Shown here: in pieces, positions 50,982 to 54,207 of the stretch
How positions within the stretch are numbered: position 1 is the first letter of the stretch
Layout of the letters: each line of letters starts with the position of its first letter
Assembly (NCBI GenBank): GCA_944324675.1
Contig: CALUXE010000007.1
Coordinates: 1-64,000 of the forward strand
DNA length: 64,000 nt
DNA from: an uncultured Elusimicrobiales bacterium
GTDB lineage: Bacteria > Elusimicrobiota > Elusimicrobia > Elusimicrobiales > Elusimicrobiaceae
Direction of reading: 5' to 3'
Notes under the pieces: model-generated
Database searches by the model: none
What the model was told of the DNA's origin: nothing
The model's input: only the letters and a program-made list of their open reading frames with translations
Translations under genes and position numbers: made by a program

Positions 50982-51138
50982 ATTTTTTGCTCCTTTATAA
51001 TTTAACCTTTTTTATATTCTATAAAATTTTGCCCCAAACCATGCAAGAGCATTGTTCCGCTAAAGAGGGGGAGGCTTTTGCCATTCTATTAACAAAAAAT
51101 ATTTTGGCCTGCGGGGATCCTCCTCCCCACTCTTGCTT

Positions 51139-51167
51139 TTGCGCGGGAAAAGATAATAACATATAAT
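51139..51167 (+). promoter_or_regulatory. Promoter of the structured RNA / glycosyltransferase transcript
   Basis: TTGCGC at 51139-51144, exactly 17 bp, and consensus TATAAT at 51162-51167. The predicted start near 51174 gives a leader of about 237 bases before the ATG at 51411. Confidence 0.7.
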
Positions 51168-51173
51168 ATTTTA

Positions 51174-51366
51174 AGAAGTACAATTTAAGATTATTTTATG
51201 GGAGCATACCAAACGGGTATGCTGAGCCGAAGTAAGATTCGGCACACGCTAAACCAGAAAATAATCGTTTGCTTTTCCCTGTTTTTTAATTAAAACAGGG
51301 GGGCGACGGTTATATGGGTTATTAGCGTGGCTCAAACTAACTGTTCGCCTTTTTTAGTTTAAGCCG
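51174..51366 (+). ncRNA. Structured RNA leader or small RNA of unknown class
   Basis: No coding sense, but dense pairing. Hairpin 1: AGCATACC (51203) with GGTATGCT (51216). Hairpin 2: GCCGAA (51226) with TTCGGC (51238). A long arm stacks CACGCTAA (51245) with TTAGCGTG (51322), ATAATCGT (51261) with ACGGTTAT (51306), and CCCTGTTTT (51277) with AAAACAGGG (51292). Hairpin 3: GGCTCAAACTAA (51329) with TTAGTTTAAGCC (51354), one mismatch. GAGCC at 51224 could instead pair with GGCTC at 51329, which would exclude hairpin 2 and offer a switch. It does not match tmRNA, RNase P, SRP or the ops/JUMPstart motif as I know them. It may be a cis-regulator of the next gene or a stand-alone RNA. Confidence 0.6.
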
Positions 51367-51410
51367 CGTTTAACGACCTTAGGTTTTCCGTGCCCTCCAA
51401 AGGAGAGCAA

Positions 51411-52364
51411 ATGTCGGAAAATACCATAAACATAGCTTTGGCCGCGGATGATAACTATGCGGTTTGTATGGGAATTACCATACTATCTGTCCTAAAAAGC
51501 GCTTCCAAAGAGGATAAACTCGCTTTTTATATTTTGGAAAATCAAATCAGCGCTAAGCGCAAAGCCGAAATAGAAAGCCTTAAAAAGTTTAGGGAATTTG
51601 ATATCTTTTGGATTCCTTTAAATCCTTCCGATTTTAAACAATGCAAGGTTACCCAGAGGGGACTTACCCTTACCACCTATGCCCGTTTTCTGATATCCGA
51701 TACAATCCCCTGTTCAAAGGTTTTGTATTTGGACTGCGATATTTTGGCGCGCGCCTCTCTTTCCCCATTATTCAATACCGATTTGGGCGACAAACTGGTC
51801 GGCGGGGTTATAGATATAAATATCGGCCCCAAATATTACAAAAAGCATTTGGGGGAAAGGGTGAATCATTATCTTAACGCGGGCGTCCTGCTGATAAACA
51901 ATGATTTATGGCGGAAATATTCCATAAGGGAATGGCTTTTTGACTATTCCGGAGATAATTCCTCCCGTCTGAAATATAATGATCAAGATGCCATAAACTA
52001 TGTTTGCGCGGGGCGCAAACACATACTTCCTTATGAGTGGAATGTTATGGATACTTTTTATTACCCGGATTTGATAGAGAGGGGCTCTTCGCGGGAAGAT
52101 ATTATCCGCGCCGCTTTGGCCCCCAAAATTAGGCATTGCAAACCTTTCAAGAAAAACTATTTCGGCCCCAATAAGGAAGAATATCGCCTGCTTATGGCGG
52201 AAAGCCCCTGGAAAGATCTTATCCCCCAAGACGACAGCGGGATAAAGCTGTATATGCTCTGCCTTTGGAATTATTTTAAGGTGCATAATTTTTTCTTTTT
52301 TAAGAAGAAGTTTTGGCGTCGGGTGAAAAGCATGGGTTTTTTGCCTCTTATAAGCAACAGGTAG
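51411..52364 (+). CDS. Glycosyltransferase family 8 protein
   Basis: Protein of 317 residues with the GT8 (LPS galactosyl/glucosyltransferase, RfaJ-like) fold. The start NIALAADDNYAVCMGITILSVL and the DxD metal site at about 108-110 (VLYLDCDILA) are diagnostic. LNAGVLLINNDLWRKY and NDQDAINYVC follow, and HCKPFKK is near the end. It retains donor configuration and probably extends LPS or another surface glycan. AAAGGAG six bases before 51411 fixes the start, and an earlier frame-start at 51390 is unlikely. It is the first gene after the structured leader and is seven bases from the next gene. Confidence 0.88.
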   Translation: MSENTINIALAADDNYAVCMGITILSVLKSASKEDKLAFYILENQISAKRKAEIESLKKFREFDIFWIPLNPSDFKQCKVTQRGLTLTTYARFLISDTIPCSKVLYLDCDILARASLSPLFNTDLGDKLVGGVIDINIGPKYYKKHLGERVNHYLNAGVLLINNDLWRKYSIREWLFDYSGDNSSRLKYNDQDAINYVCAGRKHILPYEWNVMDTFYYPDLIERGSSREDIIRAALAPKIRHCKPFKKNYFGPNKEEYRLLMAESPWKDLIPQDDSGIKLYMLCLWNYFKVHNFFFFKKKFWRRVKSMGFLPLISNR

Positions 52365-52821: not shown

Positions 52822-52853
52822 AATTATCCGTATTAAAAAAGGATGGTAATATT

Positions 52854-52955
52854 ATGAGTTTGATTGAAATATGTTTTTCTGCCGATGCCAATTATGCTCC
52901 TTATATGGGTGTTGGGATATATTCCATATTAAGGAATTCCGCCAGCAATAGATAA
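52854..52955 (+). pseudogene. GT8 glycosyltransferase N-terminal remnant
   Basis: A 33-codon frame, MSLIEICFSADANYAPYMGV then GIYSILRNSASNR and stop. It aligns end to end with the first 30 residues of the intact GT8 enzyme at 51411 (NIALAADDNYAVCMG, ITILSVLKSAS). A ribosome-binding site (AAGGATGG) is retained. The remaining 280 residues are missing and another gene begins two bases after the stop. It is therefore a truncated copy, which indicates deletion or recombination that brought in the following gene. Confidence 0.75.
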
Positions 52956-52968
52956 TATGGGAGGACTT

Positions 52969-54096
52969 ATGAAGAAAATCTTTAATATTAAAAATGAAGA
53001 AAACTTTAAAATAATTACGCTGTTAGGCAAAAAAATCTATTTTTTAAGAGATAGGGTTTACTTAAAATTTATTGACAGACAAAATGATGTCTTATTTGCT
53101 CTTTTTAATATGGGCATAGCCAAGCCATCAGAACTAAAAGAATATTTTGAAGAATATCTGTTGTTTGATTATAAATATCTGGATCTGACTAAAAAAGATT
53201 TAAATATAAATCTTGGCGATTATGTCCAAACTTTGGCAACCCAAAGGGTATTAAAGCAAATTCTGCCTCAAAAGGCTTATTCTTTTACGGACCGGGATAA
53301 TCTTTCAAATTATAGCGGTCAGTCAGCTTTTTGTATTATGCAAGGATTTTTTGCTCATGGGGCAACATTTTTGCCTAATAATAGAATATATCCCATATGG
53401 GTCGGTACACATTTTGCTAAAAGCAGTCAAGAGGATATTTTAAGATTTTTGAAATTTAATCCTGATTATTTTTCTAATCAAGAAATCGGCTGCCGAGATA
53501 CTTTCACTAAGGATTTCTTAAGCAAAATAGGGGTGAAAGCCTATTTAAGCCGCTGTTTAACTTTAACCTTTCCTCTGCGTGAAAAGCAAGAAACACAAAC
53601 AAAGGTTTTTATCGTTAATGTTCCTAAAAAGTATTTAAAGTATATTCCTAAGGATATTTTAAAGAAGGCCGTTTTTGTTAATCAACGATATATCCCCATA
53701 AATAATAGACTTGATTGCTATAATAGGGATTTTTATCTTTCCCAAACGGAAAAATTGCTAAATAAATATAAGAAAGAATCTAAATTGATTATAACTACGG
53801 CTTTACATTGCGCCAGCCCTTGTACCGCTATGGGCATACCTGTTGTACTAATTAATGATGAACACCAAAATACCAGATTTGATTTTCTAAAAGGTATTTT
53901 AAAGATTTATAACTATGCTGATTTCAAAGGGAAAAAGGTAAATTTTAATCCTAAAGCCCCCAATATAGAAAAGTTGAAAGAATATATGATAAAAAATTTA
54001 GAAATATCTATTAAACTGGCGCAAAAGGAGGATATAAATATGGAAGAACTAAAGGCAGTCAGAGAAAAAATAGAAGGATTTACCGTTAAAATTTAG
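52969..54096 (+). CDS. Polysaccharide pyruvyl transferase family protein
   Basis: Protein of 375 residues. Motifs of the family (PF04230-like) are NINLGDYVQTLATQRVL (about 80-96), EIGCRDTFTKDFLSKIGVKA (about 178-197), and a later LIITTALHCASPCTAMGIPV (about 278-297), where the His of the active-site region lies. The N-terminal 40 residues (KKIFNIKNEENFKIITLLGK) are a segment often found on cell-surface glycan enzymes. It may add pyruvyl groups to a surface polysaccharide. The coding sequence is visibly more AT-rich than its neighbours and follows a GT8 remnant, which suggests acquisition by transfer. I start at the second ATG (52969) because GGGAGG precedes it. Confidence 0.78.
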   Translation: MKKIFNIKNEENFKIITLLGKKIYFLRDRVYLKFIDRQNDVLFALFNMGIAKPSELKEYFEEYLLFDYKYLDLTKKDLNINLGDYVQTLATQRVLKQILPQKAYSFTDRDNLSNYSGQSAFCIMQGFFAHGATFLPNNRIYPIWVGTHFAKSSQEDILRFLKFNPDYFSNQEIGCRDTFTKDFLSKIGVKAYLSRCLTLTFPLREKQETQTKVFIVNVPKKYLKYIPKDILKKAVFVNQRYIPINNRLDCYNRDFYLSQTEKLLNKYKKESKLIITTALHCASPCTAMGIPVVLINDEHQNTRFDFLKGILKIYNYADFKGKKVNFNPKAPNIEKLKEYMIKNLEISIKLAQKEDINMEELKAVREKIEGFTVKI

Positions 54097-54207
54097 TTTT
54101 TAATTTTTGCGGCAGCTTAAAGAGATAAATTAGTTTCAAAATAGATAAAGCGAGTTCAATTATTGTAAAATATATAGGTAATAGAAATTTTTTATACGGA
54201 GATAACA

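What the first reader, a model, noticed from the sequence alone, without database searches (positions are those of the whole stretch)
51139..51410. Densely structured RNA in front of a surface-glycan operon
A consensus promoter (TTGCGC-N17-TATAAT) precedes about 190 nt with six helices of 6-12 bp, including a long arm of stacked helices between 51245 and 51329. Two mutually exclusive pairings involve GAGCC at 51224: local hairpin 2, or long-range pairing with GGCTC at 51329. GGCTC is also part of hairpin 3. This resembles a switch or an antitermination leader. I do not recognise the class.
Basis: seen in the sequence. Interest (0 to 1): 0.75.

Follow-up and report, generated by a model that had tools for sequence, protein, structure and literature searches.

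The report
Unlisted switch-like RNA before surface genes
The stretch is one copy of an RNA family absent from Rfam, with about 300 copies in gut-type Elusimicrobiota genomes, that sits just in front of pilus, surface-sugar and DNA-methylation genes and looks built to let transcription stop or continue depending on which of two shapes it folds into.

Summary
Window 51189-51355 (+) folds far better than shuffled sequence (z = -7.2) and matches no Rfam family. It is also one member of a large unlisted family: about 255 matches in 72 of 90 genomes of the window's family and 43 in 13 genomes of another class of the same phylum, up to 17 per genome. The structure is supported by abundant compensating changes.

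All members share one logic. A 5' domain (P1, P2, P3 and a pseudoknot strand) comes first. A middle strand can pair back (P1) or forward (antiterminator). The forward partner can instead pair onward into an intrinsic terminator ending in a U-run. P1 then antiterminator is the predicted folding order in 97 of 109 members, against 3 of 340 shuffles. A gene on the same strand usually starts 20-120 nt later: most often a type IV pilin-like protein, otherwise glycosyltransferases, outer-membrane proteins or DNA methylases.

Best reading: a cis-acting transcription attenuator of riboswitch type, trigger unknown. c-di-AMP is excluded for the window's family and c-di-GMP is unlikely, because two genomes with 8-9 copies each show no GGDEF domain.

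The parts
51162..51167 (+). -10 element TATAAT; the weak -35-like TTGCGC is at 51139-51144
   Evidence: read from the sequence; TATAAT conserved in G008, G001 and G017; homology with the syntenic relatives resumes at 51153
51187..51355 (+). whole RNA element, aptamer-like 5' domain through terminator U-run
   Evidence: R1 188 bits, R2 162 bits; the window sequence is among those both models were built from; fold z = -7.2
51189..51201 (+). P1 5' strand GATTATTTT plus TGG (51199-51201)
   Evidence: pairs with 51258-51266 and 51254-51256; 93.6% of cells paired in 35 sequences, 4 of 12 pairs with double changes
51203..51223 (+). P2 hairpin
   Evidence: 8 of 8 pairs with double changes, 94.1% paired
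51226..51243 (+). P3 hairpin; 51224-51228 GAGCC can instead pair with 51329-51333
   Evidence: 6 of 6 pairs with double changes
51245..51252 (+). pseudoknot helix B, 5' strand CACGCTAA
   Evidence: pairs with 51322-51329; 8 of 8 pairs with double changes, 98.6% paired
51258..51269 (+). switch strand X: P1 3' strand (51258-51266) or antiterminator 5' strand (51261-51269)
   Evidence: antiterminator 98% of cells paired; P1 and antiterminator energies far below shuffles in 115 copies
51277..51300 (+). P4 hairpin inside the antiterminator
   Evidence: 9 of 9 pairs with double changes
51302..51318 (+). switch strand Y: terminator 5' arm GGCGA/CGGTTA (51302-51312), antiterminator 3' strand (51305-51313), inner terminator GGG (51316-51318)
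51322..51329 (+). pseudoknot helix B, 3' strand TTAGCGTG, lying in the terminator loop
51331..51349 (+). terminator 3' arm: inner CTC 51331-51333, TAACTG 51338-51343, TCGCC 51345-51349
51350..51355 (+). terminator U-run TTTTTT
   Evidence: read from the sequence; U-run criterion met in 108 of 115 copies
51329..51366 (+). extra hairpin GGCTcAAACTAA...TTAGTTTaAGCC that reaches past the terminator and excludes it
   Evidence: seen in the window and close relatives only; compensating changes against G001 read by eye, not counted formally
51400..51405 (+). ribosome binding site AAGGAG of the downstream gene
   Evidence: read from the sequence
51411..52364 (+). regulated gene: glycosyltransferase family 8
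   Evidence: PF01501 E = 2.9e-36
52972..54096 (+). polysaccharide pyruvyl transferase, second recognisable glycan gene of the operon
   Evidence: PF04230 E = 1.4e-14; operon membership inferred from orientation

Best explanation
A cis-acting, two-state transcription attenuator of riboswitch type, one copy of a family not in Rfam. As the leader is transcribed, P1 forms first around P2, P3 and the pseudoknot strand. When strand Y (51305-51313) and the pseudoknot 3' strand appear, unstabilised P1 is displaced and strand X joins Y in the antiterminator, so polymerase reads on into the surface-glycan genes. If something stabilises the P1-P2-P3 core, X stays occupied, Y pairs with 51338-51349, the terminator forms and transcription stops at the U-run. 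Shown by computation: the helices, their compensating changes, their mutual exclusion, the folding order in energy minima, and the gene context. Inferred: that the terminator works in the cell, that the trigger stabilises P1 (an OFF switch), and that the trigger is a small molecule rather than a protein. The trigger is not identified.
For: Fold z = -7.2. Covariation in 35 copies: terminator-plus-pseudoknot state 92% paired with 42 of 57 pairs doubly changed; antiterminator state 95.4% with 37 of 42; no shuffle reaches either in 500, and slid versions pair at 36-44%. 25 copies from another class, aligned without a structure model, give 82.7% and 81.4%, again with no shuffle of 500 reaching the paired-cell percentage or covariation score. 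In 109 copies truncated as if being transcribed, P1 is in the minimum before Y exists in 99, the antiterminator before the terminator arm exists in 107, and the terminator at full length in 83; shuffles give 37, 12 and 30 of 340. U-run in 108 of 115. Of 113 copies, 98 have a gene with a ribosome site on the same strand within 450 nt, median 57.5 nt; in 45 it starts within 50 nt, leaving little or no room for another promoter. In G000 and G001 a tandem second copy without terminator ends directly at the start codon of a GT9 gene.
Against: No expression, termination or probing data. P1 itself is mostly conserved in sequence rather than covarying, especially in the second class. For 15 of 113 copies no downstream gene was found within 450 nt by the simple rule used. 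The partners are functionally mixed, which is unusual for a metabolite riboswitch. The minimum-energy folds ignore the pseudoknot and kinetics.
Confidence: 0.76

Rival explanations
1. The leader is bound by a protein (or responds to ribosome or polymerase state) rather than by a small molecule; the same P1/antiterminator/terminator logic is driven by an RNA-binding regulator.
For: Mixed surface and DNA-modification partners and many copies per genome suit a global regulator. A Shine-Dalgarno-like AGGAG without a start codon is concentrated 40-59 nt upstream of P1 in about a quarter to a third of the copies of the window's family, so 30S binding could take part.
Against: The conserved parts form a compact, pseudoknotted, multi-helix core of the kind small-molecule aptamers have. 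No regulator gene was sought or found.
Confidence: 0.3
2. A free-standing small RNA with its own promoter and terminator that acts in trans; the downstream gene is unrelated.
For: A good -10 just upstream and a strong terminator with U-run; 15 of 113 copies without a nearby gene by the rule used.
Against: Same-strand gene starts within 50 nt of the U-run in 45 copies; a mutually exclusive antiterminator is conserved in almost all, which a plain small RNA would not need; a terminator-less tandem copy ends at a start codon.
Confidence: 0.12
3. A DNA-level element, such as an integron-type recombination site or a mobile cassette end, that folds as single-stranded DNA and only resembles a leader RNA.
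For: It accompanies variable accessory genes such as pilins, methylases and adhesin-like proteins.
Against: Copies are scattered on many contigs rather than in arrays. The GT8 copy is syntenic in close relatives. Terminator, U-run and orientation to the gene are constant. No copy in 26 viral contigs picked by a shared 18-mer.
Confidence: 0.03

Closest known systems
c-di-GMP-II riboswitch upstream of pilA1 in Clostridioides difficile (Cdi-2-4) and the c-di-GMP-I class
   Same: Leader RNA with alternative terminator, in front of type IV pilin and other surface genes, many copies per genome (PMC6366702).
   Different: No match to any Rfam model at gathering or relaxed thresholds. Two genomes of one genus with 8 and 9 copies have no GGDEF match.
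Orphan riboswitch candidates (structured leaders with conserved core and unknown ligand)
   Same: Covarying multi-helix core, intrinsic terminator and antiterminator, many genomic copies.
   Different: Confined, as far as searched, to one phylum; partners are surface and DNA-modification genes rather than one pathway; the pseudoknot 3' strand lies in the terminator loop and its helix is kept in both states.
T-box and leader-peptide attenuators
   Same: Terminator/antiterminator choice in an mRNA leader.
   Different: No Rfam T-box match; an SD-preceded leader ORF of 6-60 codons is found in only 12 of 113 copies, with no common peptide.

Membership tests
Any Rfam 15 family, including all listed riboswitch classes | covariance-model match at the family's gathering score | tested here: not met
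   whole window and 19 other loci: tRNA only; relaxed scans of four members: only chance-level hits below gathering scores
c-di-GMP-I / c-di-GMP-II riboswitch | ligand-producing GGDEF enzyme present in carriers | tested here: inconclusive
   present in most carriers, absent in G173 (8 copies, 90% complete), G229 (9 copies, 63% complete) and G114 (one weak copy, 99% complete); genomes without detected copies also have it
c-di-AMP (ydaO) riboswitch | diadenylate cyclase present in carriers | tested here: not met
   PF02457 in 0 of 12 genomes of the window's family, found in all 5 tested of the other class
transcription attenuator with terminator/antiterminator | two mutually exclusive pairings, one an intrinsic terminator with U-run | tested here: met
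transcription attenuator with terminator/antiterminator | same-strand gene directly downstream | tested here: met
   98 of 113 copies by a simple rule, median 57.5 nt
riboswitch | direct binding of a small molecule that changes gene expression | not testable with these tools
   no ligand identified; needs probing and reporter assays
leader-peptide attenuator | conserved translated leader ORF | tested here: not met
   12 of 113 copies, no common peptide

The most novel reading that the evidence does not exclude
A new riboswitch class, widespread in host-associated Elusimicrobiota, that senses an unidentified signalling molecule and sets the expression of pili, surface glycans, outer-membrane proteins and DNA methylases together, i.e. 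a surface-identity regulon run by up to 17 copies of one RNA per genome.
Probability: 0.4. Interest if true: 0.85.

Novelty: new variant of a known kind. Interest (0 to 1): 0.74.

Why it matters
About 300 copies of an RNA family absent from Rfam sit in a little-studied phylum. The regulon suggests how these bacteria set their surface: pilin-like genes number 18 to 150 or more per genome in the window's family, and this RNA stands before a subset of them. The spread over two classes of the phylum, the clear two-state design and the exclusion of c-di-AMP make the missing signal a concrete target. The one-contig genome G018, whose size matches cultured Elusimicrobium minutum (from memory), carries a copy, so the question may be open to experiment.

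Tried and rejected
Known class: no Rfam hit in 20 sources at gathering scores or four members at relaxed thresholds. tmRNA/tRNA: ARAGORN finds only three tRNAs. c-di-AMP: cyclase absent from the window's family. c-di-GMP: unlikely. Leader peptide: no conserved ORF. Viral origin: an 18-mer scan gave 26 contigs, none with the RNA. attC-like DNA element: rejected from layout. Papers on Elusimicrobia with riboswitches or pilins: nothing on this RNA. A strand-by-strand complementarity tally was too permissive (shuffles also score) and is not used. A constrained-energy comparison gave impossible energies because the constraint was set wrongly and is discarded; only its distance counts and truncation series are used.

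Full report
OBSERVATION. 51170-51410 has a predicted fold of -86 kcal/mol; 200 dinucleotide shuffles average -56.2 with s.d. 4.1, z = -7.2. TATAAT stands at 51162-51167 and is kept in three relatives; the -35 is weak and the scanner did not list it.

A FAMILY, NOT A SINGLETON. DNA search found clear copies in five other genomes of the genus, one of them with two. Some weaker matches had the same layout and lay in front of type IV pilin-like genes. A covariance model from 11 copies found about 90 matches in 30 of 60 relatives (my count of the listed rows). A second model from 35 copies found matches in 72 of 90 genomes of the window's family, about 255 in all by my sum of the table, up to 17 in one genome. 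Across the phylum, 79 of 295 genomes match at E <= 1e-4; outside the window's family they are nearly all in one family of another class (f15), with scores up to 138.7 bits, plus a few weak singletons. A closer look gives 43 matches in 13 f15 genomes. The model was trained on the window's family only, so the f15 hits are independent.

I read f15 as probably Endomicrobia, which is inference. G018 is one contig of 1,643,562 bases, which I recall as the size of Elusimicrobium minutum Pei191; that rests on memory.

STRUCTURE AND COVARIATION. Two alternatives were counted on 35 copies. State 1 (P1, P2, P3, P4, pseudoknot B, terminator): 92.0% of cells paired, 42 of 57 pairs with double changes, covariation score 0.618 against 0.211 shuffled, none of 500 shuffles as high, slid versions 37-44% paired. 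State 2 (P2, P3, B, antiterminator, P4): 95.4%, 37 of 42, 0.770 against 0.245, none of 500. Helix B has double changes in all 8 pairs and 98.6% of cells paired. That alignment was fitted to state 2, so it leans towards state 2. As a check, 25 f15 copies were aligned by MAFFT alone: 82.7% for state 1 and 81.4% for state 2, with no shuffle of 500 reaching either percentage or covariation score. P1 is mostly sequence-conserved there; its compensating changes come from the window's family. A longer subtype (about 210 nt, CTGTTTTTGG.../...CCAAAAACAG) keeps the same scheme with different letters in the switch strands (read by eye).

SWITCH LOGIC. Strand X (51258-51269) pairs with 51189-51197 (P1) or with strand Y (51305-51313, antiterminator). 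Y pairs with X or with 51338-51349 (terminator, U-run 51350-51355). Folding growing transcripts of the window gives P1 up to 51316, the antiterminator at 51330-51345, the terminator at 51350 (truncation series only). Full-length energies are -65.4 (terminator) and -61.6 (antiterminator), pseudoknot not counted. Over 109 copies: P1 in 99, antiterminator in 107, terminator at full length in 83, P1 followed by antiterminator in 97, all three in order in 76. Dinucleotide shuffles: P1 37, antiterminator 12, terminator 30, P1 and antiterminator 3 of 340. Duplex energies agree: P1 -7.5 against -2.8 shuffled, antiterminator -9.7 against -3.8, terminator -15.3 against -6.5, pseudoknot -8.8 against -1.6; U-run in 108 of 115.

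GENE CONTEXT. Of 113 copies examined, 98 have a same-strand gene with a ribosome site within 450 nt, median 57.5 nt, 45 within 50 nt. In the window's family 37 of 84 copies precede a pilin-like gene by a strict motif, and at least one further copy (L166) does on inspection. Others: GT8, GT9, TibC-type glycosyltransferase, outer-membrane beta-barrel, sulfatase, TM2 protein. In f15: DNA methylases including EcoRI-type, GT61, PD-(D/E)XK endonuclease, TM2, radical SAM, long secreted proteins. Pilin-like genes number 18 to at least 150 in the genomes of the window's family tested, 39 in the window's own, so most lack the RNA. The GT8 copy is in the same place in G001 and G008 (PEP carboxykinase, small lipoprotein, RNA, GT8); those two carry a transketolase-like gene between lipoprotein and RNA that the window lacks, and homology resumes at 51153, just before the -10.

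A TERMINATOR-LESS TANDEM COPY. In G000, G001 and G017 a GT9 gene is preceded by a normal copy; in G000 and G001 the model also finds a second copy right after it that keeps P1, P2, P3 and helix B but has no U-run and ends at the start codon. This suggests a translational version of the same core; that is inference.

WHICH TRIGGER? c-di-GMP is the obvious guess, since a c-di-GMP-II riboswitch controls pilA1 in C. difficile (PMC6366702). GGDEF domains are in most carriers, but both genomes of genus g81 carry 8 and 9 copies and no GGDEF match; G114, nearly complete, carries one weak copy and none. Two of these genomes are incomplete, so this is strong doubt, not proof. Diadenylate cyclase is absent from all 12 genomes tested of the window's family. 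I do not name a ligand.

NOVELTY. No Rfam family matches; paper searches found nothing on it. The working principle is known; the RNA family, its architecture and its regulon are not in the sources searched. Subscription journals and preprints are not held, so an earlier description elsewhere cannot be excluded.

Noticed in passing
about 40-59 nt upstream of P1 in many related copies, e.g. L070, L035, L088, L104, L122: A Shine-Dalgarno-like AGGAG or GGAGG with no evident start codon is sharply concentrated at this distance (20 matches in one 10-nt bin against 0-1 per bin further away). It could be an mRNA stabiliser of the STAB-SD type or a standby site. The window copy lacks it.
   Followed up: partly
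L093 and L094 (G000:C3 and G001:C1), L096 (G017:C7), L098 (G007:C6): Tandem copies. Before the GT9 gene in G000 and G001 the second copy has lost the terminator and ends at the start codon; in L098 both copies keep terminators.
   Followed up: partly
longer subtype, e.g. L111, L113, L112, L119, L121: P4 is replaced by two hairpins; the first has a recurrent loop (CTGATCCC, CTAATTACCC, AAGTCATGAGC, ATTGCAGACC in place of each other), which may be a module of its own.
   Followed up: no
genomes G000, G009, G014, G026, G106: Very many type IV pilin-like genes: 39, 112, 108, at least 150 and 146 N_methyl matches in genomes of 1.1-1.5 Mb; only a small part have the RNA.
   Followed up: no
window 51026-51153: Relatives G001 and G008 have a transketolase-like gene of about 1.8 kb here; the window lacks it, which brings the lipoprotein gene next to the RNA promoter and probably explains the poor -35.
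   Followed up: partly
window 52822-54150: The gene after the 149-aa ORF differs between relatives (polysaccharide pyruvyl transferase here, a glycosyltransferase-like protein in G001, none in G008): a variable slot in the glycan operon.
   Followed up: no
L118 (G021), 43 bits: A weak, possibly degenerate copy precedes the ribosomal protein L31 gene.
   Followed up: no
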